This document shows positions 882-40,431 of a stretch of 45,392 nucleotides of DNA, piece after piece; positions within the stretch are counted from its first letter, which is position 1, and every line of letters begins with the position of its first letter. The stretch covers positions 1 to 45,392 of the forward strand of contig PLXM01000153.1 of assembly GCA_003153235.1 (NCBI GenBank), given 5' to 3'. The DNA comes from Rhodospirillales bacterium. GTDB taxonomy: Bacteria; Pseudomonadota; Alphaproteobacteria; Micavibrionales; UBA2020. Below the pieces are notes generated by a model. It was given only the letters and a program-made list of their open reading frames with translations. It searched no databases and was not told the origin of the DNA. A program made the position numbers and the translations under genes.

Positions 882-1067
882 CGTTCTCTGGAATTTGTGT
901 GCGCTGGGCGCGCCAACAGCCAGCGGGTAAGCGGATCTGGGATAGCGCAGCCCTTTAAATAATAAAGAACGTCCATTGCCCTTCGGTGAAGCAAGCGTGG
1001 TCCAAGGATTTAAACATCCGGGGCCGCGTTTTTTATTGCGCGTGGTTCCGGTTCACACAAGGAACGG
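882..1067 (+). ncRNA. Candidate structured leader RNA before the methyltransferase
   Basis: This gene-free stretch can fold into a closed multi-branch structure. Outer helices pair CGUUC (882-886) with GAACG (1062-1066) and UUGUGUG (895-901) with CACACAA (1054-1060). Inside are hairpins at 902-925 (CGCUGG/CCAGCG), about 976-994 (CUUC-GGU-GAAG extended by UUG/CAA), 1005-1018 (GGAU/AUCC), and a 10-bp stem of 1019-1028 with 1041-1050. The 3' strand of the outer helices includes the likely ribosome binding site AAGGAA (1059-1064), just before the ATG at 1073. I infer a cis-acting regulatory leader or a processed small RNA. I matched it to no known family, and the pairings were found by eye. Confidence 0.45.
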
Positions 1068-1072
1068 ATGTC

Positions 1073-2380
1073 ATGCAAAACCTACATATTACTTACATAA
1101 ATATCGACACGCTAAAACCCTATCCGAACAACCCTCGCGAGCACAGCGACAAGCAGCTTCACCAGATTGGGCGAAGTATTAATAAGTATGGCTTCATTGT
1201 GCCTCCCCTGGTAGATGAAAATAATACAGTCGTCATCGGCCAGGCCCGCATTGATGCCGCAAAAAAGATCGGCATAAAAGAAGTGCCGGTTATTTGCATC
1301 ACGCATTTGACGCCGGCTCAGGTCCGCGAATTTCGTATCGCCGACAATAAACTCTCCGAACTTTCCGAATGGAACATAGAGGCTCTCAAGAATGAATTCA
1401 AAGGCCTCTTAGAGTTTGACTCCACGTTGGACTTGACCATTACCGGGTTTGAAATAGCAGAGATTGACACAATTATACTAGGCGAATCTCCAGAAGCCGA
1501 CGCCGCTGACGACACCGACGGACTCTTCAAGCCCGAGCCTGTAAGCCAATTAGGCGATTTGTGGCTCTTCGGCAACAAGCATCGGCTTTTATGCGGTGAC
1601 GCTCTAAAGCCAGAAGATTATGTGCGGCTTATGGATGGATCCCTCGCTCAGGTCGTGTTTAGTGATCCCCCCTATAATTTATATGTAAAAAACATTGGCG
1701 GCCTTGGTAAGGTACAGCACGATGAATTCTCCATGGCCAGCGGCGAAATGAACGAGGGTGAATTCACCGGGTTCCTCACGACCGTTCTTCGCCGCATGGC
1801 TTCCTTCTCTGAAGATGGCAGCATCCATTTTGTGTGTATGGACTGGCGTCACGTCGGCGAGCTCTCCGCCGCCGGGCGCGCTGTTTTTAGTGAGCATAAA
1901 AATATATGCGTCTGGACAAAGGATAATGGCGGCATGGGCAGCCTTTACCGCTCGCAACATGAACTCATTTTTGTCTATAAAAATGGGACTGCGCCGCACA
2001 TAAATAATATTCAGCTCGGGCAGCATGGAAGATATCGCACCAACGTATGGCATTACCCCGGTCAAAATACATTTCACGCCGGACGCGAAGAAGATCTGGC
2101 TGCGCACCCGACTGTCAAACCCGTCCAGCTCGTCGCCGATGCTATTTTAGACTGCTCTAAGCGCGACGGCATTGTACTTGATGCCTTCGGCGGTAGCGGC
2201 ACGACGATCCTTGCCGCAGAAAAAACAGGCCGCCGGGCGCGCCTGCTCGAACTAGAGCCTCAATATGTTGATGTGGCAATCCGGCGCTGGCAAAAGCTAA
2301 CCGGCCAGGATGCCGTGCACGCCGATAGCGGAAAAACCTTCAATCAAATATCCGCGGAGAAGCAAAATGACCAGCAATAA
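1073..2380 (+). CDS. ParB-domain DNA methyltransferase (phage type)
   Basis: A ParB/sulfiredoxin-like N-terminal domain (about residues 5-100, LKPYPNNPREHS and VIGQARIDAAK) is fused to an amino-methyltransferase of the N6-adenine/N4-cytosine class. The catalytic motif DPPYN is at residues 198-202 and the SAM-binding motif DAFGGSGTT at 370-378. This order, motif IV before motif I, is the beta class. The fusion is common in alphaproteobacterial prophages and mobile islands next to terminase genes. I chose ATG 1073 because the ParB domain starts directly after it and AAGGAA lies about ten bases upstream; upstream in-frame residues do not look protein-like. It overlaps the next gene by 14 bp. It probably modifies element or phage DNA before packaging; the recognition site is unknown. 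No partner restriction nuclease is adjacent. Confidence 0.88.
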   Translation: MQNLHITYINIDTLKPYPNNPREHSDKQLHQIGRSINKYGFIVPPLVDENNTVVIGQARIDAAKKIGIKEVPVICITHLTPAQVREFRIADNKLSELSEWNIEALKNEFKGLLEFDSTLDLTITGFEIAEIDTIILGESPEADAADDTDGLFKPEPVSQLGDLWLFGNKHRLLCGDALKPEDYVRLMDGSLAQVVFSDPPYNLYVKNIGGLGKVQHDEFSMASGEMNEGEFTGFLTTVLRRMASFSEDGSIHFVCMDWRHVGELSAAGRAVFSEHKNICVWTKDNGGMGSLYRSQHELIFVYKNGTAPHINNIQLGQHGRYRTNVWHYPGQNTFHAGREEDLAAHPTVKPVQLVADAILDCSKRDGIVLDAFGGSGTTILAAEKTGRRARLLELEPQYVDVAIRRWQKLTGQDAVHADSGKTFNQISAEKQNDQQ

Positions 2381-2756
2381 CGAAAACAAAGAATATACCG
2401 TCGGCTACGGTAAGACGCCCGTCCACAGCCGCTTCAAGTCTGGGCAGTCCGGAAATACGAAAGGCCGCCCAAAACGCGTTGCAAACATTAAAGATACGTT
2501 TCTGCGTGAACTCAGCAGAAAGGTGAAAGTGAAAGAAGGCGGTCAGGAAATGAAGATTAGTAAGCAAGATGCTTTCATTAAAGCGCTTATAAATCGATCT
2601 CTTGCAGGCGACAGACATGCCGCGCGCGAAGTCCTGGTGCTGATAGCACGGCTTATCGGCCTTGATGGCGGCAATGGCCAAACGATGGACCAACTGCGTG
2701 AAGAAGATATTGATATTATACAAAGCCTTCTAAATCGCCGCGCAGAGGAGAAATAA
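2367..2756 (+). CDS. DUF5681 domain protein (possible small-terminase partner)
   Basis: The N-terminal block HSRFKSGQSGNTKGRPKR is the hallmark of DUF5681, a small basic family often encoded directly before phage terminase large subunits. The rest is helical (LINRSLAGDRHAAREVLVLIARLIGL). Position suggests a DNA-recognition or small-terminase role, but that is inference from context. ATG 2367 is chosen because the conserved block begins about 20 residues later. The gene overlaps the methyltransferase end and is followed two bases later by the terminase start, so the three genes form one transcription unit. Confidence 0.8.
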   Translation: MTSNNENKEYTVGYGKTPVHSRFKSGQSGNTKGRPKRVANIKDTFLRELSRKVKVKEGGQEMKISKQDAFIKALINRSLAGDRHAAREVLVLIARLIGLDGGNGQTMDQLREEDIDIIQSLLNRRAEEK

Positions 2757-2758
2757 AA

Positions 2759-4180
2759 ATGAAATTTGATCAGCGCATTCTTGATGCTGCACTCCGTACC
2801 GATCTGGCCAGCTTCATCGGAAAAAGCCAGAGGGTATTGCAACCAGCCAAGCTATATTTACATGGCCCGCATATTGATGCCATCGCCTGGCACTTACATC
2901 TCTGCATGACCGGCAAAATTAAACGCTTAATCATCAACATGCCACCGCGATATTTGAAGTCGGTTTGTACTTCGGTAGCTTTCCCGGCCTTCCTCCTCGG
3001 GCATGATCCGACTTTGCGGCTCCTTTGCTTAAGTTACGGCGACGGACTTGCCGGTGACTTATCTCGCAATTGTCGAGAAATCATGCAATCGACTTTCTAT
3101 CGCGATCTTTTCTCAGGGACCCGGATCAGCGCCAGTAAGAACACCGAGTTTCTCTTTACAATGACGGCTGGCGGATTCCGTCGGGCGGCGTCTTTTGGCG
3201 GCCCCTTGACCGGCCTTGGTGGTGATATGATTATTATCGATGACCCGCTTAAGGCGGACGACGCGCTCTCGCCTTCGAAAAGACAGGAAGTGATAGACAG
3301 GTTTGAAAACACTGTCTCCTCACGCTTGGATAATAAAAATGATGGCTGCATCATTCTCGTCATGCAGCGCCTGCACTTAGATGACTTGACGGGCCATTTA
3401 CTTGAAAAGGGCGGCTGGACCGTCTTAAGCTTGCCCGCTATCGCGGAAGTCGAACAAGAGATCCCCATCGGCTCCAAAATCCTCTGGCGCCGCAGTCCGG
3501 GCGATGTTCTACATCCCGCCTATGAGTCCCTTGAAAGCCTCAGAAAAACGCAAGCCAGCATGGGCAGTTTTCTATTTTCTGCACAGTACCTACAGCGCCC
3601 CGTGCCGGAGCAGGGCGAAATCTTTAAATGGGAATGGTTCAAGATCTACGATGCTCTGCCTGTATTCCGAAACGGCGAAAGTTACGTCATGAGCATAGAT
3701 ACTGCCAAGAAGGATGGCGAGCGGAATGACTATAATGTATTTACCATTTGGCAAATCAAACATGGAAATTATTTTCTTGTCGATGTCTTCCGACAAAAAA
3801 TGATATATCCCGAACTCAAAAAGGCCGTTTATGAGGTTGCGGCAAAGTATCCGAGCATCGATCTACTATTCGAAGACTCCGCCTCAGGCACGTCGCTCTA
3901 CCAAGAAGTATACCGCCTCCGCGGACCGACAATGAACCGCGTAACCGCCATTAGGCCCGAGGGCGATAAAGGTACGCGCGCATCTACTGTGTCTGCCATC
4001 GTCGAAAGTGGTCAGGTGTTTTTACCCCGCCAAGCGCCTTGGCTAGAAGCTTTCCGCAATGAATTTCTGCAGTTCCCAAATGCGCGGCATGACGACATCG
4101 TCGATAGCCTGGTCCAGTTTTTGAAAGAAGAAAAGCGGATTAAAGGTACAGTAACGGCGATGAAATTGGGCGGCCTGTAG
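2759..4180 (+). CDS. terL: Phage terminase large subunit
   Basis: Packaging motor ATPase plus nuclease. The Walker A-like loop MPPRYLKS is at residues 61-68, Walker B MIIIDD at 157-162, and the RNase H-fold nuclease begins with SIDTAKK (D314) and ends with DD (about 445-446). Length (473 residues) and motif spelling match the family of putative large terminases whose C-terminal domain is defined by a methanophage homologue (psiM2 type). No portal, protease, capsid or tail genes follow. It is therefore an orphan packaging gene, either a prophage remnant or part of a satellite or gene-transfer cassette carried with the ParB-methyltransferase. The key residues look intact. Confidence 0.9.
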   Translation: MKFDQRILDAALRTDLASFIGKSQRVLQPAKLYLHGPHIDAIAWHLHLCMTGKIKRLIINMPPRYLKSVCTSVAFPAFLLGHDPTLRLLCLSYGDGLAGDLSRNCREIMQSTFYRDLFSGTRISASKNTEFLFTMTAGGFRRAASFGGPLTGLGGDMIIIDDPLKADDALSPSKRQEVIDRFENTVSSRLDNKNDGCIILVMQRLHLDDLTGHLLEKGGWTVLSLPAIAEVEQEIPIGSKILWRRSPGDVLHPAYESLESLRKTQASMGSFLFSAQYLQRPVPEQGEIFKWEWFKIYDALPVFRNGESYVMSIDTAKKDGERNDYNVFTIWQIKHGNYFLVDVFRQKMIYPELKKAVYEVAAKYPSIDLLFEDSASGTSLYQEVYRLRGPTMNRVTAIRPEGDKGTRASTVSAIVESGQVFLPRQAPWLEAFRNEFLQFPNARHDDIVDSLVQFLKEEKRIKGTVTAMKLGGL

Positions 4181-8514: not shown

Positions 8515-9063
8515 ATGACCGACCAGACTGAAGATAAGGGCAGAATCCAGCCAAGGCGCAATGCAGCGGCCTATTTACGCAGCGCAACTTCTTATGCGCC
8601 CGATAGCACCGAGTATCCGGCGACTAAAGAACAGTCCGAGAGCATTCACGCCTATGCTGCAAAACATGGGATAGACATAGTTAAGACCTATATCGATGAA
8701 GGAAAAAGCGGCCTCACCATTCAAGGACGTGATGGCCTCAGAAGCATGATCGCCGACATTCACTCAGGCGCTGCGGAATATACTGTTATCCTAATGCGTG
8801 ACATCAGCCGCTGGGGCCGAGCGCAGCCGGATGAATCTGCCCACTACGAGTTTATCTGTCGTCGTGCTGGGGTTGATGTTCTGTATGTAGATGAGCCACT
8901 CAAGAACGATGGCAGTGTCATGTCCAGCATGATCAAAGCAATGGTACGCGTAGTCGATGAAGAGTACCGCCGCGAGCGCGCAGCCAAAGCTAAGGCGGTA
9001 CGACTACGCCGAAAAGCCCGCAAGGCTGAAGCTTCAACAGAAACGGAAGGTGTACATGAATAG
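8515..9063 (+). CDS. Small serine-recombinase-like protein without the catalytic Ser
   Basis: 182 residues consisting only of the resolvase catalytic fold and a basic helical tail (ERAAKAKAVRLRRKARKAEA). The active-site strand reads YLRSAT. Aligned with YVRMST of the large partner, the nucleophilic Ser falls on Ala24, with a Ser one residue earlier (S23). The two catalytic-region arginines in SRWGRA are kept, as are the YIDEGKSGL block and the DESAHYEFICR helix. I infer a catalytically dead accessory subunit, possibly a dimer partner or directionality factor, although Ser23 acting in place of the usual residue cannot be excluded. The same Ala occurs in cassette B. AGGGG precedes the ATG, and the gene overlaps the large recombinase by 8 bp. 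Confidence 0.82.
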   Translation: MTDQTEDKGRIQPRRNAAAYLRSATSYAPDSTEYPATKEQSESIHAYAAKHGIDIVKTYIDEGKSGLTIQGRDGLRSMIADIHSGAAEYTVILMRDISRWGRAQPDESAHYEFICRRAGVDVLYVDEPLKNDGSVMSSMIKAMVRVVDEEYRRERAAKAKAVRLRRKARKAEASTETEGVHE

Positions 9064-10612
9064 TCACGAGCCACCATCAGACAACCAGCCTCTGCGCAAA
9101 GCCGCCATATATGTCCGTATGTCGACGGAGCACCAACAATACTCCATCGAGAACCAGACGGCGGCGATGGAACTGTATGCCGCCCGGCATAATATTGAAG
9201 TCGTCAAGACCTATACGGATGGCGGCAAAAGCGGCCTCAGCTTCAGTGGGCGCTTTGGGTTGCAACAACTGATCGCGGATGTTAAGGCGAAAACAAAGGA
9301 ATTCACAGACATATTGGTGCTCGATTTAACTCGCTGGGGGAGGTTTCAGGATGTGGATGAAAGCGCCCATTACGAGTATCTCTGCCGTAGTGGGGGTTTC
9401 AAACTCCATTACGTGGCCGAGCAGTTCGTTAATGACGGCAGCGTCAGCTCCTCCATTATCAAAAACGTGAAACGCGCCATGGCGGCGGAGTACAGTCGTG
9501 AACTATCGAAAAAAGTATTCGTCGGGCAGTGTCGTCTCATCGAAAAAGGCTTTCGTCAAGGTGGCCATGCCGGTTACGGCCTGCGGCGGCTGCTCATTGA
9601 TGAGAACAAGCAGCCCAAATGCGAGCTTCAGCCGGGCCAACGTAAATCCTTCCAGACTGACCGGGTCATACTTGTGCCGGGACCGGATGAGGAAGTGCAG
9701 AATGTCCGCTGGATATATACATCCTTTGTGCAAGATGGTCTTAACGAAGCTGAAATCTCTGCACGCCTGAATGCACGCGGTGTATTGACAGATCTGGGAC
9801 GTCCGTGGACACGCAGCACTGTGCACCAAATCCTGATAAATGAGAAATACATTGGCAACAATGTCTATAACCGTAGATCTTATAAATTGAAAGAAGTGCG
9901 CACAGTCAATCCAGAGGAGAAGTGGGTGCGGGCTGAAGGTGCGTTTGAAGCTGTAATCGAGGCACAATACTTTCTTGCCGCACAACATATTATTCAGGCA
10001 CGTAGCCGTAAGATTTCAGACGAAGAGATGCTGGATAAGCTTAAAATCTTGCAAGAGAGTTCGGGCTGGCTGTCGGGTGTCCTGATTGACGAAACAGACG
10101 GCATGCCCTCCAGCAGCGTCTACGCCAGTCGCTTCGGTGGCCTGATGAGGGCTTATGAACTGATCGGCTATGATTCGGGACGCGATAACAGTTTCATTGA
10201 GGAGAACAAACGTCTACGTGAGATGCATCCGGGAATCATGCGGGATATTACTGATAAAATATACGAATTTGGCGGCACGGTGCAGCAGGATGGAACGAAC
10301 GGCTTTCTGATCGTCAATGGTGAGCTCAAAGTATCCGTGGTTATTTGCCGCTGTATGCAGACCGGTGGGGGCTCCAGTCGCTGGAAAATACAGTTTGATG
10401 CTGGCCTTATGCCGGATATTACTATCGCAGTGCGTATGGATCCTATGAACCTGCATGTTTTTGATTATTACGTCATTCCTTCTCTTGATGTTGAGAACCC
10501 GAAGCTCCGGCTGGCGGAGGACAATCATTTTGCTCTGGATGCTTACAGGTTTGATGATCTGCAGCAGTTTTTCGTATTGATGAAACGTGTTCCTCTGATG
10601 GAGATTGCATGA
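9056..10612 (+). CDS. Large serine recombinase, cassette A
   Basis: 518-residue site-specific recombinase. The N-terminal resolvase domain has IYVRMSTEHQ with nucleophile S23, then TYTDGGKSGLSFSGR and LDLTRWGRFQD with the catalytic arginines. The central recombinase domain (GYGLRRLLIDENKQPKCE, then LTDLGRPWTRSTVHQILINE) binds DNA. The C-terminal region has no obvious four-Cys zinc ribbon of the phiC31 type. ATG 9056 is chosen because the catalytic strand begins about 17 residues later and the start overlaps the upstream stop. It is the fourth-to-last step in nothing else visible: it is the only candidate integration/excision enzyme of cassette A. It is coupled to the ParB gene by ATGA. Most residues are identical to the copy in cassette B. 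Confidence 0.92.
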   Translation: MNSHEPPSDNQPLRKAAIYVRMSTEHQQYSIENQTAAMELYAARHNIEVVKTYTDGGKSGLSFSGRFGLQQLIADVKAKTKEFTDILVLDLTRWGRFQDVDESAHYEYLCRSGGFKLHYVAEQFVNDGSVSSSIIKNVKRAMAAEYSRELSKKVFVGQCRLIEKGFRQGGHAGYGLRRLLIDENKQPKCELQPGQRKSFQTDRVILVPGPDEEVQNVRWIYTSFVQDGLNEAEISARLNARGVLTDLGRPWTRSTVHQILINEKYIGNNVYNRRSYKLKEVRTVNPEEKWVRAEGAFEAVIEAQYFLAAQHIIQARSRKISDEEMLDKLKILQESSGWLSGVLIDETDGMPSSSVYASRFGGLMRAYELIGYDSGRDNSFIEENKRLREMHPGIMRDITDKIYEFGGTVQQDGTNGFLIVNGELKVSVVICRCMQTGGGSSRWKIQFDAGLMPDITIAVRMDPMNLHVFDYYVIPSLDVENPKLRLAEDNHFALDAYRFDDLQQFFVLMKRVPLMEIA

Positions 10613-11514
10613 GCAATGAAAAAACTGGAATCAAGATGGTTCCTATCGAAAAGATCAATATTCTCAACCCGCGTACACGTAACAAAAAGATCTTTGAAAC
10701 TATCATCGATAATATTGCAGAGGTTGGTCTCAAGAAGCCTATTACGGTCACAGCCTGCAAGTCCGGCGCTGAGGGGAAAGATTACGATCTGGTATGCGGT
10801 CAGGGACGTCTTGAAGCTTTTCTGGCCTGTGGTCAGACGCATATCCCGGCCATGATTATCGACGCCAGTGAAGAACAAGCGCTTATCATGAGTCTCGTTG
10901 AGAACCTCGCACGGCGGCAGCATAAGGCCACTGATCTTCTGAAGGCTATCGAGATTTTGCAACAGCAAGGCTACAGCATTACAAAAATTGCGGAAAAGAT
11001 CGGCCTCGCATGGAACTATGTCGATGGCATCCTGAAGCTGATGCAGCAGGGCGAAGAGCGCCTTATGGTTGCAGTCGAGAAAGGGCAAATCCCCTTATCC
11101 ACAGCGATACAGATTGCAGATTCTCCTGATGAGGACACTCAGAAATTTCTACAAACTGCCTATGAAACAAAGCAGCTGCGCGGCCAGAAACTGATTCAAG
11201 CCAAACGTCTGCTTGAAAAGAGAAAATCACGCGGCAAGGAGTTTGAAAAAGGCACAGGCGGTCACTCCAGAGGGCGTACCGGAGAAGTCATTTCTGTCAA
11301 AAGTGTCATGAAAGTTCTGCAGAAGGATGCTGACCGCAAAAAGCTCATGACAAAAAAAGCCCATAAGGCCAGCGAACATATGCTCTTTGTGGTAACGGCG
11401 CTACGAAAGTTGTCTAAGGATCCGCGTTATAATATTTTATTGCAAGCCGAGAAGATGGATACCATGCCACAATCCATCTCTGATATTCTGGCAGAAGGTA
11501 GCTCTCATGGGTAG
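10609..11514 (+). CDS. ParB-like protein 1, cassette A
   Basis: 301 residues with a ParB N-terminal nucleotide-binding fold: IEKINILNPRTRN, GLKKPITV, then VCGQGRLEAF (GQGR at 64-67, the counterpart of GERR) and SLVENLARRQ (ENLARR at 98-103, the counterpart of ENxQR). A helix-turn-helix follows (SITKIAEKIGLAWNYVDGILKLM, about 125-148). ParB family members bind parS-like sites and hydrolyse CTP as clamps. No ParA is encoded in the window, so a role in plasmid-style segregation is doubtful; assembling DNA at the recombination site or regulating the island are alternatives. The start overlaps the recombinase stop (ATGA), and the end overlaps ParB 2 by 8 bp. Confidence 0.83.
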   Translation: MSNEKTGIKMVPIEKINILNPRTRNKKIFETIIDNIAEVGLKKPITVTACKSGAEGKDYDLVCGQGRLEAFLACGQTHIPAMIIDASEEQALIMSLVENLARRQHKATDLLKAIEILQQQGYSITKIAEKIGLAWNYVDGILKLMQQGEERLMVAVEKGQIPLSTAIQIADSPDEDTQKFLQTAYETKQLRGQKLIQAKRLLEKRKSRGKEFEKGTGGHSRGRTGEVISVKSVMKVLQKDADRKKLMTKKAHKASEHMLFVVTALRKLSKDPRYNILLQAEKMDTMPQSISDILAEGSSHG

Positions 11515-12427: not shown

Positions 12428-12602
12428 CGACTGAAGCAGGCAGCTCGGTCGCAAGGCCTTGAGCGCCAGCGAAGGAGACCGGGATCCTTATAAGCGCCGG
12501 GACCGTGGGAGATGCCGTCGGATGTCTTTTATCCGGAGATGGAGCGAGCACGGTGGTGGGGATGGCGGCGAACCCGTCCGGAGCTCACCAGGCTGGCGCG
12601 CC
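12428..12602 (+). ncRNA. Conserved non-coding tract after ParB 2, copy A
   Basis: This tract has no plausible ORF but is conserved with the matching tract of cassette B (39312-39498, minus strand), most strongly at 12533-12602. It folds well. Hairpin 12443-12464 is GCUC-GGUC, a GCAA tetraloop, then GGCC-UU-GAGC. Another pairs GGAUGG (12560-12565) with CCGUCC (12574-12579), and GGUG/CACC close outside it. In copy B one C of CCGUCC is U, so the pair becomes G-U and the helix survives. I infer a structured RNA or a recombination/ParB site; it matches no family I recognise. Confidence 0.5.
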
Positions 12603-12663
12603 AAAATGCCCAGCCGCCCGAGCCTGCTCTCGTGGGAGATATAGGCGGGATAATCATGTATGT

Positions 12664-12703
12664 TCCCCGGCAAGTCAGTAGCTTCAGGCTGGTTTGTCGG
12701 GGA
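12664..12703. repeat. Imperfect inverted repeat (hairpin)
   Basis: TCCCCGGCAA (12664-12673) pairs with TTGTCGGGGA (12694-12703), ten pairs with one G-U as RNA. It follows the conserved tract and could end the head-operon transcript, but no T run follows. The rest of 12603-12844 shows no gene. Confidence 0.4.
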
Positions 12704-14176: not shown

Positions 14177-15034
14177 ATGTCTACGTCAACCAGCACCCGT
14201 TTTGCGCCGCCCACTGGCCTCCGCTGGCTCTATGTGGACTTCAACAGTTATTTTGCGAGTGTCGAGCAGCAGCTGAATCCCCGCCTACGCGGCAAACCTA
14301 TCGCGATTGTTCCAGTGGAAACAGATGCTACCTGCGCGATTGCAGCCAGCTACGAGGCAAAGGCTTTCGGTATCAAGACGGGTACACCTATATATGAGGC
14401 GAAGAAAATGTGTCCCGGCCTTATCTGCGTATTGGGCCGTCATGAGCACTATGTAGAATTCCATGAACGCCTTCTGGATGAGATCGACCACCACATACCG
14501 GTAACAGACGTCTGCTCCATCGATGAAATGGCCTGCAGGCTGATGAATAATGAAATCTCTGTCGCCCGTTCAACGGAGATCGCGCATTCCATCAAAGCTG
14601 GTATAGCCAAAAATATCGGAGAATATGTACGCTGCTCCATCGGCATCGCTCCCAGCAAATATCTTGCCAAGGTCGCCACCGACATGAAAAAGCCTGATGG
14701 TCTGACCATTCTTCAGCCAAGTAATATGCAAGACAGATTACTCGAACTGACACTCCGCGACCTTCCCGTCATCGGCCCTAACATGGAGCAGCCCCTCAAC
14801 CGTGCCGGTATTTACGACATGAAGAAGCTTTTCTCCATGCAGCCCAAACACATGCGCGCCGTCTGGGGCAGCCTCTGGGGCGAAAAAATGTGGTATTACC
14901 TTCGTGGTTATGAGGTTCCCGATCAGGAAACTAAACGTAGCTCTATCGGCCATAGCCATGTATTGGCACCGGAGATGCGCCCGCCTGCGCAGGCCTGGCA
15001 TCCTTGCCGAACTTCTGGTTCAGCCTGTCCATGA
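14177..15034 (+). pseudogene. Y-family DNA polymerase, truncated and rearranged
   Basis: Encodes the palm and fingers of a UmuC/DinB-type translesion polymerase: LYVDFNSYFASVEQQ, CSIDEMAC and GEYVRCSIGIAPSKYLAK, ending soon after GHSHVLAPEMRPPAQAW. The intact homologue at 30263-31561 continues about 150 residues further. Here homology stops at the palindrome GCCTGCGCAGGC (14983-14994), a short unrelated tail reaches a stop at 15034, and a C-terminal fragment appears inverted just downstream. The SOS promoter and ribosome site (GGAG near 14160) remain, so a truncated protein may be made. Without the little-finger domain normal synthesis is unlikely. Confidence 0.8.
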
Positions 15035-15640: not shown

Positions 15641-18600
15641 TCCGTCCAGTGCGAACTGAACCTGATGCCCCTGCAGCTCCAGCAGCATCTGTGTGGTCAG
15701 AGCCGCGTCAACGTTATCATCTACGATAAGGACACGACGGCCTGTGGATGGCGTCTTTTTGGGCGCAACGGTTGGCTCTAGAGGAAGAGAAACTTCCGTT
15801 TCTGAAATAATTGGCAGGCGGACAATGAATTCGCTGCCCTTCTTTCGGCCCTCGCTTCTGGCCTCAACGGTTCCGCCGTGTAGCTCAACAAGACGGCGCA
15901 CAAGCGTGAGTCCGAGGCCCAAGCCACCCTGTTTTCTGTCGAGTGAACGTTCTGCCTGAACAAAAAGGTCAAAGATATAAGGCAGAATGTCGGAAGATAT
16001 GCCGATACCATTATCAATAACCCGGATGAGCGCGTTATCCTTTTCACATTCAAGCGTCACGGTAATATGACCGCCGGGCTCGGTATATTTGGAGGCATTG
16101 ATCAACAGGTTAGAGACGATTTGTTCGAGGCGGATGGGGTCACCTTTGATAATCATACCTTCTTTAGGAAGCGACACGGAAAGTTCATGCTGGCGCGCCT
16201 CGAAATGATTGCGCACACTTTCCACGGTCTGATTGACTAATTGCACCAGATCAACCGGCTCTTTTTTGAGGACAATTATACCGCTTGTGATGCGGGACAC
16301 ATCAAGAAGGTCATCGACGAGCCGGACCATTTTCCGAAGCTGGCGATCCATGACGCTCTTGAGTTCTTTTCTCGCTTTTTCATCTACATCATCGCGCTTT
16401 AATATATCCAGGGCGTTACGAATAGGCGTTAACGGATTGCGCAGTTCGTGAGCCAGCATCGCCAGAAACTCATCCTTGTGGCGGTCATTATCTTTAAGGG
16501 TATTAAGCGCCGTTCTGTAATCGGACACATCCTCGATAGCGAGAAGAATCTGGAGTTGCCCGCCTCCGACCAGTTGCGTGCCATTCAGACGCATCGTCTT
16601 CTTCCCAACATTGGGAAAGACATGAGTGATTTCGCAGTCTTTGAACGAGGTGTCCTTTAAAAGAAGAGCTTGCAGGAACTCACGCAATTCAGGAATATCC
16701 CACTGCTTGTCCCCCAGATCATAAAGGAGCCGTCCCTCGGTTGTCTCCGGCGTCGTTTTAAAAGATTTATAGAAGGCCGGATTTGCACGAAGGATGCAGA
16801 GGTTTTCATCCAGTACCAGAAAGGGCTGGGTCACTGTCTTGATCGTTGTCTCAGCATAATTGATCGCCGTTCTATAGTCAGAGACATCTTCGATGGCGAG
16901 AAGAATCTTGAACTGTTCCACTCCGGTTAGATTCTTGCCATTCAAGCGCATCGTCTTCTTCCCGATATTGGGGAAGGCGTGGGTTATTTCACAGTCCTTG
17001 AATGAGGTGTCTTTTAAAAGTAGAGCCTGCAGGAACTCACGCAATTCAGGAATATCCCACTGCCTGTCACCCAGATCATACAGGAGGCAGCCTTCAGTCG
17101 TCTCCGGCGTCGTCTTGAAAGTTTTATAGAAGGCAGGGTTTGCCCGCAGGATGTGAAGGTTTTCATCCAGTACCAGAAATGGCTGGTGCGCTGTTTTGGT
17201 AACTTCCTCGGCATAATTGAGCGCCAGTTTCAGCTTATCGTTCAATACATTGAGTTCGCGATTGCGGTGGTGCATTTCTTCGTTGGTGGTAACGAGTTCT
17301 TCATTGGCTGACTGCAGCTCTTCTTTGGAAGTTTCCAGTTCCTCGTTGGTGCTTTGAAATTCCTCGTTACTGGAAAGAAGTTCTTCCTGAGACGCCTGCA
17401 GCTCCTCTTTGGTGACCTCATATTCTTCCACCATTGTGCGGATATAATCACGCGTATCGTCGAGTTCCCGTTTTGACCGCAACAATTCATCATCATTACT
17501 TCCTTGTTGCGCATCTCTCCTGCCAGACTTCATGCCTTGGCGGACAAATCTTCCGAATTCCAGCCAGAAACCCGGCACCTCCGCCATTGAACGCGCCGGA
17601 TGAATCTTGTCTTCAAAAAAGATAAGGAAGCGAGGCTCTTCTGCTGCAGACCGTTGCACAGGAATCACTTCCAGCGTTATCTCTCTGTTTCCCCCGGAGG
17701 CCTCTACCCGCAGGCCGGGTATGCGTACCGGTGCGCCGTCTTTGCCCGCTTTCTGGACTGCTTTACTGAGCTCGACGATCAGCCCGGGTCTTGCAAGCTT
17801 CTGGAGGTTTGTATCCGGCGGGCCGGAAGGCAGCGTCAGATAAGGATCGGTGTCGCCGCGAAGCTCCAGAATGTTCATATTTTTGTCGCAAAGCACTGAT
17901 GCCGGAACGTAACGGCCAAGAGTTATCCGGTCTACCTCCCGTTTCTGTTGCTCGGCTTCCGTATACTTTTTCTGTGAGAAATCGGGATAAGAAGAAGGGA
18001 ACGGAGGAGGAGAAGAAAGAGAATGTACGGTCTTCCCGGTAGAATCTTCCAGATACTTCAGTTGAGACTGCACAGGAAGGGGTTTCTTGGTATAGAACTT
18101 AATCTTCTTATCGTCCGAAAGAGTAAAGATATCTGTAAATCCGCCGATATTCTCGGCGGGGCCCAGCATGAGAATCCCCTCGGGTTTCAGCGCATAGTGA
18201 AATAACGGAATAACGCGCTTTTGCATCAGCGGATTCAAATAGATCAACAGGTTGCGGCAGCTGATCAGATCCAGCCGTGAAAAAGGCGGGTCGCTCGTTA
18301 CGTTATGGCGCGCAAAAATGCAGAGATCGCGCACGGATTTTGAAACCTGATAATGGTCACCGGTTTTGACGAAGAATTTTTCCAGCCGCTCGGGCGATAC
18401 GTTGCGCGCGATGTTCCCGACATAAATTCCGGCGCGGGCTATCTGAAGAGCATCTTCGCTGACATCGGTGCCGAAGATCTGGATTTGCAGGCCAATACCG
18501 TGTTCCCTAAGATATTCAAGGCAACAAATAGCAAGAGAATAGACTTCCTCTCCTGTTGAACAGCCCGCTACCCAGATCCGCAATGGACCCTTGGTAGAGT

Positions 18601-19860: not shown

Positions 19861-22527
19861 TCAGGCTGCTGCTGCCGGTTTATGACAGTACTGTGTCGAC
19901 AACCCCGCTAGCGTCGTGCTTGGTTTCACAGCATCATGAGGGATCAGGAGATAACGCCAGGGCTTGCCACCATGTTCTTTTTCATGCTGGGAGGCGAACT
20001 CACACCATTTGACGGCAGCCTTGGCTTTCTGCTGCACGTCATCGTCGGAAATTTCATCGGCGCGCTTGATTTCGCAAAGAAATTTCTCTGTTGCGGTTTC
20101 GATGACGAAGTCCGGTTCATAGCCATCATTGTCGCTGTAGTATATTTTCACGTCATTACGGCCCGGCTTGAACCATTTGAGAACGGATTTTTCATCTTCC
20201 AGCAGAACCGCCATTTGTCGCTCTGAATCCGAGTCAAATTTCTGCTGCGGATACAGGCATTTGCTGAAACCCTCAAATATCATCCCGCGAATGTCCTGTT
20301 TCAGATCGACGTTCATGCGGAAGGAACGGACTTTTTCGCCTGAGTCAATCGTGACAGACCCCATTTTTGGGCGCTCAAAACCGCGCGTAATGGATGCCTG
20401 ATAATCCGAATATCCCGCCTTCACATGCTTTGACATCTGTCCGTGGATCAGGTCGGCCAGTTTCTGGCGATAGAACTGGACGACATTTTTGATGTCTTCC
20501 GGCTTCGACAGGTATCCGGAAACGTATTTCACCATCTGCCCTGCCAGCTTATAAAGCAGGTCGGCGTGGTCATCGTATGAAATATCATCAAAATCGATCA
20601 GCGCAGATACGATGGAATCTTCCAGCTTCTCTTCTGCATGAATGCCATTTTGCTGCGTCAACTGTTCTCTCTCTGCCGTACGCAAATGTTGGATCAGGAT
20701 ATTATCATCCACAGGTTGCAGGCGCGGCAGATCGGCGGTCGACAGATCAAAATCCGTAAAGCTGTAACTGTCAGCCTCTACCGGCGTCACCGTGACGCGG
20801 GGAATGTCGATGGTGTTATGCACATAGGCTTCTGTCACCTTGCGAACGATCTTCTCGACATCCTGCTTTTCGACAATACCTTCAAGCGTACCCTGTTTCG
20901 GCAGGAGGAGTTCTGTTACGCGAGCTACGATCTGTCCCTGAATTTCCTCTTTTTGCAGGTTGCGGGAAGACGGCAGTTTTTCGAATTCTTTGATGACGGC
21001 CATAGTTTGCAGAGCGACAGGGCGCTCCACTTCGGTGAACAAAGGCTTTTGCTCTTTTGAAGCCCCCTCGATGATCAGGTCTATTTTCGATTTTATCTCG
21101 ACAGCCTGTTTTGGTCTGGCGCTGATATCTTTGCCGATGATGACGCCGACGCGGATGATGGAGTGCTTGTCATTGGCTTCGCGGATGATTTCATCGAATT
21201 TATCATGCGCGACGATGGTCAGCCGGTCTACGGCGGTCACGCCCGTGCGCTTGCCATACGGCAGACGAAGCCCGCGCCCGATGGATTGCTCCACCAGCGT
21301 GCGCGAATTTGCGGCGCGGAGCGGGACGATGGTGTACAGATTCGTTACGTCCCAGCCCTCTTTCAGCATGTTGACGTGGATGACGATCTCGGTCGGTTCA
21401 TCCGGATTTTCGACAGCCAAAAGACGCTCGACCGTCTCATCCTTCTCTTCGCCTTTTTGGGCGGAGTGGACTGTGATCACGCGGTCTTTATATTTCCCCT
21501 CAAAAAAATCATTCGATTTGATGAGCGCCATGAGACTTTCGGCATGCGTCGTATCCTGCGCCACGACCAGGATGAACGGTTTGACGTAGGGCTTCTGATT
21601 ATTGTCGGCATAGACTTTCAGCTCGGCCTTGACGTTCTCATGGATGCAGATGGCGTCTTCCAGCTTGATTTTCTCCAGCTGGTCTTCGCTGAACGCCTTG
21701 GCATCAAAGTTTTCGCGCGTGGCGACGGCGGGTTCCTTGACGTAGCCGTCTTCCATCGCTTTGAACAGCGGATAAGCATAAATAACGTTTTTGAACGGTA
21801 CTGCTGTTTTGCCGCTTTCGATCTGCGGTGTCGCCGTGAGCTCAAGGCCGATGACAGGGTTCAGCTCGTTGATCGCCTTTACGCCAGCCGATGCCCGATA
21901 ACGGTGAGACTCGTCCATCAACAGGACAAGGTCGTCCAGCTTCGACAGGTATTCAAAATAGCTCTCACCGATATATTCGGAAAGACGTTTGATGCGCGGT
22001 GCCGCTCCGCCCCGGACTTCGGAGTTAATTTTTGAGATATTGAAAATGTTGATGTGGATGCTCTCTGCCTGCCCGAACATATCCGTGCCGCGTACGCCGC
22101 GACCGCTCTCGTAATTGTCGCCGGTGATGATTTCCGGCGGGTGGATGGCGAATTCGGCAATGCCCTGAAAAACGTATTTTTTGGTATTCGGCGTAAAATC
22201 CGCAATCAGCTTGTTGTAAATGGTCAGGTTTGGAGCCAGCACGAAGAAGTGTTTCATGCCATGTGTCAGGTGCAGATAAGAAATAAACGCGCCCATCAGG
22301 CGGGTCTTGCCGACGCCGGTGGCAAGCGCAAAGCAAATCGACGGAAAATCGCGCTCAAAATCCTCCACGCTGGGGAATTCTGACTTTATGGTTTCAAGCG
22401 CGGCGACGACATCACGGTCTTTATTCAGCTTGATGATCTCGCTAATCCGCGCCAGAATTTCGAGAGAATCTTTCTGCGGAACCCGCAGAGACAGACGGTT
22501 CGCGATGGAATTGGCGTTTTTATTCAT
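19861..22527 (-). CDS. res: Type III restriction enzyme, Res subunit
   Basis: 888-residue ATP-dependent restriction subunit. SF2 helicase motifs: Walker A ATGVGKT (69-75), DESH box (205-208), ELTATPQIE (motif III region) and EQSIGRGLRLP (motif VI). A C-terminal nuclease of PD-(D/E)XK type is visible as GYEPDFVIETATEKFLCEIKRADE split as PDF...EIK. Res acts with the Mod subunit and cuts DNA lacking methylation at head-to-head sites. It is the last gene of a four-gene operon, 11 bp after mod. Length is normal for the family and the motifs look intact, so activity is expected. Confidence 0.92.
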   Translation of the reverse strand: MNKNANSIANRLSLRVPQKDSLEILARISEIIKLNKDRDVVAALETIKSEFPSVEDFERDFPSICFALATGVGKTRLMGAFISYLHLTHGMKHFFVLAPNLTIYNKLIADFTPNTKKYVFQGIAEFAIHPPEIITGDNYESGRGVRGTDMFGQAESIHINIFNISKINSEVRGGAAPRIKRLSEYIGESYFEYLSKLDDLVLLMDESHRYRASAGVKAINELNPVIGLELTATPQIESGKTAVPFKNVIYAYPLFKAMEDGYVKEPAVATRENFDAKAFSEDQLEKIKLEDAICIHENVKAELKVYADNNQKPYVKPFILVVAQDTTHAESLMALIKSNDFFEGKYKDRVITVHSAQKGEEKDETVERLLAVENPDEPTEIVIHVNMLKEGWDVTNLYTIVPLRAANSRTLVEQSIGRGLRLPYGKRTGVTAVDRLTIVAHDKFDEIIREANDKHSIIRVGVIIGKDISARPKQAVEIKSKIDLIIEGASKEQKPLFTEVERPVALQTMAVIKEFEKLPSSRNLQKEEIQGQIVARVTELLLPKQGTLEGIVEKQDVEKIVRKVTEAYVHNTIDIPRVTVTPVEADSYSFTDFDLSTADLPRLQPVDDNILIQHLRTAEREQLTQQNGIHAEEKLEDSIVSALIDFDDISYDDHADLLYKLAGQMVKYVSGYLSKPEDIKNVVQFYRQKLADLIHGQMSKHVKAGYSDYQASITRGFERPKMGSVTIDSGEKVRSFRMNVDLKQDIRGMIFEGFSKCLYPQQKFDSDSERQMAVLLEDEKSVLKWFKPGRNDVKIYYSDNDGYEPDFVIETATEKFLCEIKRADEISDDDVQQKAKAAVKWCEFASQHEKEHGGKPWRYLLIPHDAVKPSTTLAGLSTQYCHKPAAAA

Positions 22528-22538
22528 GGATGTCTGCC

Positions 22539-24278
22539 TTATTTACGTTTTACGGATGTCTTTTTGGCATCTGCGTCGTCGCCAAAGAGCGGCAGGTCGC
22601 CGGAGGCCTGTTTTGCTGCACGCTTTGCCCGAACGGTCGGGATATTGGTGGAGGGTTCCGGCTCCAGCATCGGCAGGTTCTGGACGTTCAGGCTGTAGTC
22701 GTCCTTGTCCCATTCGCATTTGTCGAGAACGGCGCGCGGAATTTTCTTGACGGTCAGATTTTCGAATTTGTCGGCATTGCCCCGGAAGGCGGCGCAGCAG
22801 ATAAGCAGGGTGCGGTTCTCTCCCGCCTCCTCGGACAGTGCCGACAGTTGCCCCTGATCGAGCGTCTGCGTCGTCACATATATAAAGTCGGTCTCGGTCG
22901 AATGCCCCTGCTGCCAGTACACCGTATCGCTCGGCGCATAGGTGAAGCCCATCAGCTTGCACATCGCCTGCGACAGCATGACGGGGTTGTATTCTTTGTT
23001 GATGACGGGCTGGTTGTATTTGTCGAAGGTAATCAGCGACGGCGCAAGGCTGTAATACCGGAACCCGCCGCCGCCTTTCCAGCCGACAGCCTCAGAAATG
23101 CCGCCCTGATCCTCGCCAGAAATGACTTTTTGCAGACGCGGGATGATGTGCGTATGGCAATGTTCACCCAGCTCCACCATAATCCAGCGCCGACCCATTT
23201 TTTGTGCGACAGCGCCGGTGGTGCCGGAACCGGCGAAAGAGTCGAGGACGAGGTCATTGGGGTTTGTTGAAAGAGCAAGAATTCTTTTCAAAAGTCTTTC
23301 TGGCTTCGGCGTTGAAAATAGCTGCTCGAGCTCAGGAAGAAGTTTTGCATTTTCAGCCTTTGCCTCTTGGTTATGCCCCACATCCTCAGAAAGCCACAGC
23401 GTAGACGGTACAACGCCGTCTTTCCCTTCTTTTAAATATCTCTTTAAACGGGGCTGGTTTTTTCCATCTGCCCCCCACCATATTCTTCCCTCTGTATTAA
23501 AGGCCTGTATTGTTTCAAGAGAGTAACCCCAGCACCTTCCTTTTGGAGGTAATATCTCCTCGTTATGGGGACTTATTATTGGGAATAGCCCAGAAGATTT
23601 TCCGGTGGCAGCATACTGCTTTCCGCGTTGTCCCGAAGTTAAGCTTACATGCAGAGGGCTTGATGTCCAAGAACCGCGTGGATCATTATCAGGGTTTTTA
23701 TATTCTTCCGTATTCCGATCACTTCTCTCAATCATACCCATTTTAAAGCTCAATAAATTTTTCGCATAAACTAAAACCATATCCGTCGCAGAAGAAAAAG
23801 TGACTGCATTATTGTGAATGCTCGTCGTCTTCTGCCAAGTTATAGTCCCCATAAAATTAATGCGTCCAAAAATTTCATCACAGAGCGTTTTTAAATAATG
23901 CCCCTCGGCATCATCTATTGTAATCCAAATAGAGCCTTCATCTGATATTAGCTTGTTCAAAATTTCAAGACGATCACGCATAAGTCCGAGCCATATCGAA
24001 TGCTCGATGCCGTCATCATAATGTTCGAATGCCGAACCCGTATTGTACGGCGGGTCGATAAAGACGCATTTGACCTTCCCTGCATACTCCTGCTCCAGCG
24101 CCTTCAACGCCAACAGGTTGTCGCCAAAAATCAGCTTGTTGTCGAAAATATCGTTTTCCGTGACGCGGTGTCTGGCGTGATACGTCTTCGTATCGTCCTC
24201 CAGCAGAATGCGCGGCTCCAGCTTCGGGCGATGCTCCTTGCCGATCCATGTCAGTTCGAGTTTCTGTTTTTTGGTCAT
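22539..24278 (-). CDS. mod: Type III DNA methyltransferase, Mod subunit
   Basis: 579-residue adenine-N6 methyltransferase of the beta class: catalytic FIDPPYNTGSAFEHYDDGIE (DPPYN at 75-79) precedes the SAM-binding LDSFAGSGTTGAVAQ. The central region between them, rich in aromatic and charged residues (GTITWQKTTSIHNNA and following), is the target-recognition part and sets the unknown recognition sequence. The start overlaps the stop of the membrane protein gene (ATGA), so expression is coupled. It supplies self-protection for Res and is required for cleavage. Confidence 0.92.
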   Translation of the reverse strand: MTKKQKLELTWIGKEHRPKLEPRILLEDDTKTYHARHRVTENDIFDNKLIFGDNLLALKALEQEYAGKVKCVFIDPPYNTGSAFEHYDDGIEHSIWLGLMRDRLEILNKLISDEGSIWITIDDAEGHYLKTLCDEIFGRINFMGTITWQKTTSIHNNAVTFSSATDMVLVYAKNLLSFKMGMIERSDRNTEEYKNPDNDPRGSWTSSPLHVSLTSGQRGKQYAATGKSSGLFPIISPHNEEILPPKGRCWGYSLETIQAFNTEGRIWWGADGKNQPRLKRYLKEGKDGVVPSTLWLSEDVGHNQEAKAENAKLLPELEQLFSTPKPERLLKRILALSTNPNDLVLDSFAGSGTTGAVAQKMGRRWIMVELGEHCHTHIIPRLQKVISGEDQGGISEAVGWKGGGGFRYYSLAPSLITFDKYNQPVINKEYNPVMLSQAMCKLMGFTYAPSDTVYWQQGHSTETDFIYVTTQTLDQGQLSALSEEAGENRTLLICCAAFRGNADKFENLTVKKIPRAVLDKCEWDKDDYSLNVQNLPMLEPEPSTNIPTVRAKRAAKQASGDLPLFGDDADAKKTSVKRK

Positions 24279-25021
24279 GCCGCCGTCTTTCTATTATCAG
24301 AAATAATACCCCTATCCGGGTGAGTCGGGAATAGTTTTGATTGAACGAGACTTTCAATTTCTTTCATAAGGGGCTCTATTGATTTTTTACACATTTCATA
24401 AGCTTCAATTTTCATTTTATATTCTTTTGAATTTTCACCAACTCTATTGGAAACCCACGCCTTCCAAATAAGATCATCGATAGCATCAAACTTAGCTTTC
24501 AGGTCGGGGCTCAAGAAAATTCTGTTTTTTAAAAGATAGTCATGAAATCCATTAAATGCTGTATTGGCATCATTGATATCCTTCCAATTCAGAATCTCGG
24601 TATAACACTGATTTCTGTCCTGGCTACGGGACAGCCTGTCTTTTTGACCTTCAGAAAAATTAGAGCTCTTAAGAAAGTTTTGAAAATCATCGTCTGGCAT
24701 TTTTTTAAAGTCCGGTACTTCCCGAAATGACATCAGACATCGTTGAAGTGAAATGTGCGCATCATTTACCCTTGACCAGACTTCTGGAAGAACCTCATAT
24801 TCCTTATCGTGAAGTTTAAGCGTTCGGCTCAGCAGTAAGCTGATCTTTGATTTGACTTCCTCCAGCTCCCTTGCCTGTGCACCCCTATATTCTTCTAAAT
24901 TTTTTGCAAATTTATTCTCAATCCATTGAGAGCCTAAAAACCTAAAGAATAGGAAAGCAATAACAACCGCGCCGCCGGAGAAAACGACAATTTGTCCTAT
25001 AAAACTAAAAATTAACTCCAT
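24275..25021 (-). CDS. Membrane-anchored coiled-coil protein inside the type III operon
   Basis: 248 residues from ATG 25021 (254 from ATG 25039). The first 30 residues are one hydrophobic segment (FSFIGQIVVFSGGAVVIAFLFF), followed by a charged helical stretch (WIENKFAKNLEEYRGAQARELEEVKSKI region) and an alpha-helical soluble domain rich in Trp, Asp and Lys. I know no family for it. GGAGG lies eleven bases before ATG 25021, so I prefer that start. It sits between the SNF2 helicase and mod, where related operons often carry a small DUF4391 gene, and is coupled to mod by ATGA. A membrane component in a type III restriction operon is unusual and hints at an added sensor or effector. Confidence 0.7.
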   Translation of the reverse strand: MELIFSFIGQIVVFSGGAVVIAFLFFRFLGSQWIENKFAKNLEEYRGAQARELEEVKSKISLLLSRTLKLHDKEYEVLPEVWSRVNDAHISLQRCLMSFREVPDFKKMPDDDFQNFLKSSNFSEGQKDRLSRSQDRNQCYTEILNWKDINDANTAFNGFHDYLLKNRIFLSPDLKAKFDAIDDLIWKAWVSNRVGENSKEYKMKIEAYEMCKKSIEPLMKEIESLVQSKLFPTHPDRGIISDNRKTAA

Positions 25022-25023
25022 GT

Positions 25024-33740: not shown

Positions 33741-33755
33741 TAAAGGTTAAGATAT

Positions 33756-39283: not shown

Positions 39284-39311
39284 AATGCCGCAGTTTTACG
39301 GCTGATATCTG

Positions 39312-39498
39312 GGCCAGCCTGGTGAGCTCCGAACGGGTTCGCCGCCATCCTCACCACCGCGCTTGCTCCATATCTGCGCCAGATTGCACAGACGGCTTCT
39401 CCTGCGGTCCCGACGTTTGTAAGGGTTCCGGTCCCCTATCTTGTGGGCGCTCGCCGCCAAAGGCTGGTTTTTGGGCTAAGGCGGGGCAACTCCGTTGG
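39312..39498 (-). ncRNA. Conserved non-coding tract after ParB 2, copy B
   Basis: Reading on the minus strand from the ParB 2 stop, this aligns to 12428-12602. Shared blocks include CGGGACCG near the middle and a nearly identical run that ends at 39312 in CACCAGGCTGG. The helix GGAUGG/CCGUUC (39350-39345 with 39336-39331) is kept with a G-U where copy A has G-C. No ORF of substance is present. Structured RNA or recognition site is inferred. The spacer 39271-39311 holds a short GCCG/CGGC hairpin. Confidence 0.5.
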
Positions 39499-40431
39499 TT
39501 ACGCCGCTGTCCCTCTGAGCGACGTTATCTCTGCAATTTTCTGGAAGGTCGACAGAATATCGGAACGATACCGGGCAAGGTAGCCCACGACGCGTGCGTT
39601 ACCGAGAAGAGCACCGAGATAGCCTCTGGCTATAATAAAATCCATCTTGTTCTTATTGAAGCTTTCCTCAGCGAGGAGGTATTCTTCCTGTAGACGTCCC
39701 GACTCACTCTCCATATGAACCATGTCTGGATCACTCAGCCCCTTGATCTTTTTTGGCTTGTCCGGCTCGACTAGCTGACTTTTGGGAGTCCTCGCCAACA
39801 TGGCCTTGGCGAAGGAATGGCTGTAGATGTTGGCGGAATTCATCAGCGTTACCGCCTCGATCTGTCTCATCGGTTTCATACGCTTGAGAATAGAAAATAC
39901 GTTCACAGCCACCATCTTGTCTTTTAGAAGACAGGTGGCTTCCTTGCAAACCCCCGTCAGAAGCGTACGCCTGCGCACGATGCTGGCGACATCGCAGTTC
40001 AGGGCGCGCGCGATCCGCTCCTCCGGCACACCGCGCTTGACCGCCTTCAGAATCATCTTGTGTTCCTGTACGGGAGGGGGATGGTCGGCATGCTTGTTGA
40101 AGGTATAAGCCTCATCGTCGGTGGACACCAGACACGTCACCCGGCTTTTCCCAAGCTCTTTCAGTGCCGCGATGCGCAGGTGTCCTTCGAGCAGTATGTA
40201 CTTGTCTTTTGATCCCTTGTCGGGGAAAACGGCTGGAGGTTCGACGATACCCTCCTCGCGGATGGAAGCGAGGATTTTCTGGAATTGTTTGCCTTTCAGC
40301 ACAGCGGGCGGGATAATCCTGACCGCTGCGATCTGATCCAGAGACAGATCAACCGTCTCTTTCTCGAAGGCAATTTTGATCTTCGTTTGCGGCAGCTTTT
40401 TCTTTTCACGTGGTTTTCTTGCCATGGGCAT
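39499..40431 (-). CDS. RepB-type ParB protein 2, cassette B
   Basis: 310 residues, same layout as the protein at 11507-12427: basic start (ARKPREKKKLPQ), ParB fold with SLDQIAAVRIIPP and ILLEGHLRIAALKELG, a helix-turn-helix (VPEERIARALNCDVASIVRRR) and a RepB-like C-terminal half. Sequence differs at many positions from copy A, well beyond the difference seen in the recombinases, which argues against a fresh duplication. The first ATG (40431) overlaps ParB 1 by 26 bp; ATG 40425 is two codons in. Function is inferred from the family; no ParA is present. Confidence 0.83.
   Translation of the reverse strand: MPMARKPREKKKLPQTKIKIAFEKETVDLSLDQIAAVRIIPPAVLKGKQFQKILASIREEGIVEPPAVFPDKGSKDKYILLEGHLRIAALKELGKSRVTCLVSTDDEAYTFNKHADHPPPVQEHKMILKAVKRGVPEERIARALNCDVASIVRRRTLLTGVCKEATCLLKDKMVAVNVFSILKRMKPMRQIEAVTLMNSANIYSHSFAKAMLARTPKSQLVEPDKPKKIKGLSDPDMVHMESESGRLQEEYLLAEESFNKNKMDFIIARGYLGALLGNARVVGYLARYRSDILSTFQKIAEITSLRGTAA

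What the first reader, a model, noticed from the sequence alone, without database searches (positions are those of the whole stretch)
12428..12602. Foldable non-coding tract conserved in both heads
Seen: about 175 bp after each ParB 2 gene is conserved without coding potential. A helix (12560-12565 with 12574-12579) keeps pairing in both copies through a C-to-U change that turns G-C into G-U, and copy A has a GCAA-capped hairpin. Inference: a structured RNA, or a recombination or ParB loading site that defines the head's inner edge.
Basis: partly seen in the sequence, partly recalled or inferred. Interest (0 to 1): 0.7.

Follow-up and report, generated by a model that had tools for sequence, protein, structure and literature searches.

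The report
New structured RNA at recombinase-ParB cassettes
The stretch after the second ParB-like gene encodes a previously undescribed folded RNA that travels with the integration genes of bacterial islands, plasmids and prophages; its shape is strongly conserved, but what it does is not yet known.

Summary
Homologues were found in 63 of 80 ParB2 loci across Alphaproteobacteria, always on the same strand, 9-110 nt behind ParB2, as the fourth member of a fixed cassette: large serine recombinase (LSR), ParB1, ParB2, RNA. On 62 sequences, 21 of 27 predicted pairs show changes on both sides; 182 such cells against 47.5 in shuffles. The ten most covarying column pairs all lie in the structure. 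G-U far exceeds A-C in paired positions, so the ParB2 strand is the folded one. No Rfam family matches.

It is not the islands' attachment site: their outer end lies at tRNA-Ser 3' ends on the other side of the LSR. The same RNA, still covarying, sits alone at the ends of prophages next to tail genes, in other families of the phylum too, mostly in genomes without ParB2. So it does not depend on ParB2.

Best explanation: the last, non-coding gene of the integration operon, acting as a regulatory or cofactor RNA. The structure is near certain; the function is inferred. Novel RNA family.

The parts
8515..9063 (+). head A small resolvase-domain protein
   Evidence: PF00239, E 1.2e-18
8957..10612 (+). 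head A large serine recombinase (LSR), ORF as listed; homology to head B starts near 9070
   Evidence: PF00239 + PF07508; nearest curated names are SCC CcrB/CcrC far below cut-off
10609..11514 (+). head A ParB1 (ParB_N + RepB domain)
   Evidence: PF02195, PF07506
11507..12427 (+). head A ParB2 (RepB domain), immediately upstream of the RNA
   Evidence: PF07506 E 1.7e-40; relatives at 547 places
12431..12703 (+). RNA, head A copy, full extent including clade-specific 5' and 3' parts
12472..12618 (+). RNA core found by covariance model R1 (111.8 bits)
12431..12437 (+). CUGAAGC leader, complementary to the apical loop of P6 (possible pseudoknot)
   Evidence: 10 of 11 clade members keep CUGAAGC; 8 of 11 have the full GCUUCAG in register, in two more the end was cut by the stretch taken
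12443..12464 (+). P0 hairpin with GCAA loop
   Evidence: kept in the window clade with loops of different length (77.8% of cells paired)
12479..12500 (+). P1: 12479-12482 with 12497-12500
   Evidence: 97.6% of cells paired; third pair C-G in 38, G-C in 22 sequences
12504..12552 (+). P2: 12504-12507 with 12549-12552
   Evidence: 4 of 4 pairs with double changes
12515..12542 (+). P2a: 12515-12518 with 12539-12542, terminal loop of variable length
   Evidence: 100% of cells paired, 3 of 4 pairs with double changes
12555..12589 (+). P3: 12555-12559 with 12585-12589
   Evidence: 4 of 5 pairs with double changes
12565..12577 (+). P3a: 12565-12568 with 12574-12577
   Evidence: 98% of cells paired
12591..12615 (+). 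P4 hairpin: 12591-12596 with 12610-12615
   Evidence: 6 of 6 model pairs with double changes
12664..12703 (+). P6 long hairpin: 12664-12679 with 12688-12703, loop AGCUUCAG
   Evidence: long stems of unrelated sequence around the same loop in the window clade
39297..39438 (-). RNA core, head B copy (107.1 bits)
39499..40431 (-). head B ParB2
   Evidence: PF07506
40406..41329 (-). head B ParB1
   Evidence: PF02195, PF07506
41326..42888 (-). head B LSR
   Evidence: PF00239, PF07508
42881..43438 (-). head B small resolvase-domain protein
   Evidence: PF00239

Best explanation
The tract encodes a structured non-coding RNA: a core of about 130 nt with six helices, 200-270 nt with flanking hairpins, on the strand of the recombinase operon and its last member (LSR, ParB1, ParB2, RNA). 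Shown here: fold, strand, fixed position, wide distribution, independence of ParB2. Inferred: it is transcribed with the operon, cut or terminated at its 3' hairpin, and works as a trans-acting RNA of the mobile element, most likely a regulator or RNP cofactor that sets when the element integrates, excises or stays episomal. It would thus be tied to serine-recombinase elements in general (islands, plasmids, prophages) rather than to the ParB proteins.
For: Covariation: 21 of 27 pairs with changes on both sides, 94.6% of cells paired against 83.9% shuffled, slid controls 30-48%; 81 compensatory branch events against 1-6 for slid partners, and the ten strongest of 8385 column pairs all in the structure; 21 sequences from outside the class, not used to build the model, again 21 of 27. 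Strand: G-U/U-G 156 cells against A-C/C-A 38, 22 of these at one helix-end pair. Position: 63 of 80 ParB2 loci carry it directly behind ParB2 on the same strand, throughout the ParB2 tree with scattered losses. The same cassette on conjugative Sphingobium plasmids, where the RNA falls at the ParB2 stop and in the unannotated gap of about 500 bp behind it. Independence: RNA alone at ends of prophages whose other end carries another LSR plus a phrog_14161 gene; 12 of 14 RNA-bearing genomes outside the class show no full-length ParB2. Nothing in Rfam.
Against: No transcript was seen; no expression data could be reached. Single-sequence folding energy is unremarkable (z -1.3), as often in GC-rich RNA. 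My crude tree-based null passed only 2 of 27 pairs at family-wise E 0.05. A folded single-stranded DNA site would leave much the same signature. Solo prophage copies border unrelated DNA at their 5' edge, so there co-transcription with an integrase operon is possible only in the circular form, which I infer and did not see. 17 of 80 ParB2 loci lack the RNA.
Confidence: 0.5

Rival explanations
1. Cis-acting 3' UTR element: the fold only stabilises or terminates the LSR-ParB message and has no role as a separate RNA.
For: Always directly behind and co-directional with ParB2; ends in long hairpins after which homology stops; some copies have a run of T right after P3 (L036).
Against: A terminator or stabiliser needs no conserved sequence, yet much of the core is near-invariant, unpaired stretches included; the RNA is kept without the operon at prophage ends; the large hairpins mostly lack a U-run.
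Confidence: 0.2
2. The functional form is folded single-stranded DNA: a transfer origin, single-strand replication origin or folded recombination site of a mobile element.
For: Strand-specific fold in islands, conjugative plasmids and prophages; in prophages the border with unrelated DNA coincides with its 5' edge; covariation alone cannot tell RNA from ssDNA.
Against: Fixed, same-strand position behind ParB2 (63 of 63); strong G-U preference; islands have their outer end elsewhere.
Confidence: 0.15
3. RNA-based replication origin of the excised element, as reported for parABS mycobacterial prophages.
For: Non-coding tract beside partition-like genes in elements that must exist as circles; precedent in PMC7157519.
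Against: No ParA was seen in the cassette; the cassette also sits on plasmids with their own replicon typing; solo copies lack ParB genes.
Confidence: 0.1
4. Protein-binding double-stranded DNA site (ParB loading or recombinase binding).
For: ParB-like genes adjacent; short inverted repeats.
Against: Arms covary instead of keeping a binding sequence; G-U strand bias; most RNA-bearing genomes outside the class show no full-length ParB2.
Confidence: 0.04

Closest known systems
RNA-based prophage replication systems next to parABS (mycobacteriophages RedRock, Alma; PMC7157519)
   Same: Non-coding RNA expressed beside partition genes of a temperate element and required for its maintenance
   Different: There a parABS system replaces the integration cassette; here the RNA is part of an LSR integration cassette and occurs without ParB
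Bridge RNA of IS110 family recombinases (own knowledge)
   Same: Structured RNA encoded beside a recombinase in a mobile element
   Different: DEDD recombinase; bridge RNAs have programmable loops. Here a serine recombinase, and no hypervariable guide-like loop was seen; variable parts are mostly paired
repABC plasmid counter-transcribed RNA between repB and repC (own knowledge)
   Same: Small RNA directly behind a RepB-type gene
   Different: That RNA is antisense, short and controls RepC; this one is sense, larger, and conserved across families
P4 CI / phage c4 antisense immunity RNAs (own knowledge)
   Same: Phage-encoded structured regulatory RNA
   Different: No match to any Rfam model
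Integron attC sites (own knowledge)
   Same: Strand-specific folded element in mobile DNA
   Different: Tyrosine recombinase; cassette arrays. Here one copy per cassette and an island end at tRNA-Ser

Membership tests
Any RNA family of Rfam 15 | Score at or above the curated gathering score | tested here: not met
   No match in the window or in eight homologue loci; at E up to 10 only two weak matches far below threshold
Structured non-coding RNA (general) | Compensatory base changes that keep pairing | tested here: met
Structured non-coding RNA (general) | Absence of protein-coding conservation | tested here: met
   Frames about as open as chance, lengths not in threes
Structured non-coding RNA (general) | A transcript from that strand | not testable with these tools
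   No expression data reachable
LSR attachment site of the tRNA-Ser islands | Island boundary falls in the tract | tested here: not met
   Outer end TGGCGGAG on the far side of the LSR; tRNA-Ser at the other end in three genomes
Bridge-RNA-like guide | Conserved scaffold with hypervariable target- and donor-binding loops | tested here: inconclusive
   Variable stretches are mostly stems that keep pairing; no clear guide loop in A3, but targets were not compared systematically
RNA-based replication origin | Supports autonomous replication | not testable with these tools
   Needs a transformation assay

The most novel reading that the evidence does not exclude
An RNA required for, or controlling, serine-recombinase integration: made as the last gene of the integrase operon, and in prophages that split at its 5' edge made only from the circular form, so that it reports whether the element is free or integrated, or acts as an RNA cofactor of the LSR/ParB complex.
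Probability: 0.15. Interest if true: 0.93.

Novelty: categorically new. Interest (0 to 1): 0.76.

Why it matters
A large, strongly covarying RNA family with no Rfam relative turns out to be a constant companion of serine-recombinase cassettes on islands, conjugative plasmids and prophages of Alphaproteobacteria, and of prophages in other families of the phylum. Large serine recombinases are taken to be protein-only machines (own knowledge); a conserved RNA encoded with them makes an RNA role in integration, excision or element maintenance directly testable. The window's two heads flank Zorya and type III restriction genes, so the RNA marks carriers of phage defence.

Tried and rejected
Rfam at gathering and at E up to 10: nothing credible. 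Tract as attachment site of the islands: rejected after finding tRNA-Ser ends. Tract as coding sequence: no. Folding energy as evidence: not informative, z -1.3 on the sense strand, -0.07 on the other. A tree-permutation null for covariation was coarse (60 replicates) and passed only two pairs; branch-event counts with slid controls were more telling. Complementarity of the conserved UGGCGGCGAACCC stretch to tRNA-Ser: considered, dropped by inspection because its variable position covaries in P3a. Searches of INPHARED phages with the RNA: no match. Literature searches for an RNA tied to serine recombinases or to this cassette found no description; only open PMC papers were searched.

Full report
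What was claimed.

Check in the window. The copies match over 12473-12597 / 39313-39437 at 81%. The alignment of the two copies alone could not decide between coding, DNA-site and RNA explanations, so homologues were collected. Blastn found tracts in 14 of 385 genomes of the class (the window's own among them) and on plasmids. A scan with the ParB2 family brought 80 named loci. A nucleotide profile of the tract hits 63 of these 80, each directly behind ParB2 on the same strand, and where the whole region is held the order is constant: LSR, ParB1, ParB2, RNA. Upstream stands a divergent small HTH-like gene in many loci. On a ParB2 tree the RNA is spread over all major branches with scattered absences, so it is probably ancestral to the cassette and lost repeatedly (14 changes).

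Structure. On 62 non-redundant sequences (A3) RNAalifold gives 27 pairs, 21 with changes on both sides. The count tool gives 94.6% paired cells against 83.9% in shuffles, 182 doubly changed cells against 47.5, and no shuffle of 500 reaching any of the five measures; slid partners pair in 30-48%. Since the structure was derived from these sequences, three checks were added. All ten strongest of 8385 column pairs by corrected G statistic lie in the structure, and 81 compensatory events fall on tree branches against 1-6 for slid partners. Twenty-one sequences from other families of the phylum, not used to build the model, again show 21 of 27 pairs with double changes (they were aligned by the model, which leans towards it). 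Hairpins P2a and P0, and an insertion in P1, change length between relatives while staying paired. My tree-permutation null was strict or crude and passed only two pairs; this is stated as evidence against. Paired positions hold 156 G-U cells and 38 A-C cells, 22 of the latter at one helix-end pair: the folded strand is that of ParB2. That pairing is conserved rather than covarying, and copy B has lost the leader, so it is a suggestion.

What it is part of. In most close pairs of loci homology stops 150-210 nt past the RNA start, and on the left at consistent points. The left end is TGGCGGAG, flanked in many genomes by the same trailer sequence with a terminator-like hairpin: the reverse complement of the tRNA-Ser 3' end. 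Intact tRNA-Ser genes (CGA, GCT, GGA) stand at the other end in three genomes, giving islands of about 61, 6.5 and 34 kb (distances computed). The RNA is therefore the inner edge of the integration cassette and not its attachment site. The same cassette lies on conjugative Sphingobium plasmids, with the RNA at the ParB2 stop and in the unannotated gap before a DUF2493 gene. Genomes mostly have one copy, sometimes two heads in direct or inverted order 5-58 kb apart; the window's two inward-facing heads are of that kind. The window's own assembly holds four copies.

Solo copies. Thirty-three virus contigs carry the core pattern. Several have the RNA without any ParB2, with unrelated DNA up to the RNA's 5' edge and a convergent phage tail gene behind. 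In the three records read to the end (G412, G414, G415) the far end carries a different LSR (phrog_95), with a small phrog_14161 gene behind it where the record continues. In a circle, the RNA would again follow an LSR operon, across the attachment site; this is inference. A phylum-wide search found the RNA in 14 genomes outside the class, often 2-4 copies each, many next to the same tail genes; only 2 of these 14 have a full ParB2. The RNA is thus not a ParB accessory.

Mechanism. Shown: fold, strand, place, spread, independence of ParB2. Inferred: transcription from the integrase operon and a trans-acting role in integration, excision or episomal maintenance. A cis-acting 3' element, a folded ssDNA site and an RNA-based origin remain possible; expression data and compensatory mutants would separate them.

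Known relatives. No Rfam model matches. The nearest published situation I found is the non-coding RNA needed for replication of parABS mycobacterial prophages (PMC7157519), which differs in gene content. A Paracoccus prophage survey (PMC6536676) reports a cluster of serine recombinases without identified integration sites; whether these belong here was not tested. No description of this RNA was found in the open papers searched.

Noticed in passing
window 31872-39270 (+): Complete type I Zorya system ZorA-ZorB-ZorC-ZorD between the two heads.
   Followed up: partly
window 19861-28047 (-): Type III restriction-modification pair followed by a DrmD-like helicase gene, also between the heads.
   Followed up: partly
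window 986-4180 (+): ParB_N-N6 methylase fusion followed by a terminase, the arrangement called ParB-Tls locus in Paracoccus prophages (PMC6536676): prophage genes next to head A.
   Followed up: no
window 14177-15034 (+) and 30263-31561 (-): Two inverted, 73-81% alike copies of a gene that looks like a Y-family DNA polymerase (by eye), the first broken; a second mirrored pair inside the two heads.
   Followed up: no
G000:C92:2970-3100 (-) and G000:C53:34304-34440 (-): Two more RNA copies in the window's own genome: C92 with a full LSR-ParB1-ParB2 cassette, C53 a truncated RNA behind a ParB2 remnant.
   Followed up: yes
L161-L164 (G392): Another two-headed island: two complete cassettes facing inward 56 kb apart, TGGCGGAG-type motifs on the outer sides.
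   Followed up: partly
L126:330-523: RNA directly behind the conserved promoter-side motif GGAAAGAACTTGCCCTTTTT, with LSR, ParB1 and ParB2 all missing.
   Followed up: no
L103, L105, L115, L121, L123, L135, L168: Prophage group with the RNA at the border with unrelated DNA next to a convergent tail gene; in the records read to the end a different LSR lies at the far end.
   Followed up: partly
L071:1626-1800: ParB2 of an RNA-less cassette is followed by what looks like the 3' part of a tRNA, possibly a different attachment arrangement.
   Followed up: no
window 16502-17158: Two 300-nt direct repeats, 82% alike, inside the 1315-codon ORF.
   Followed up: no
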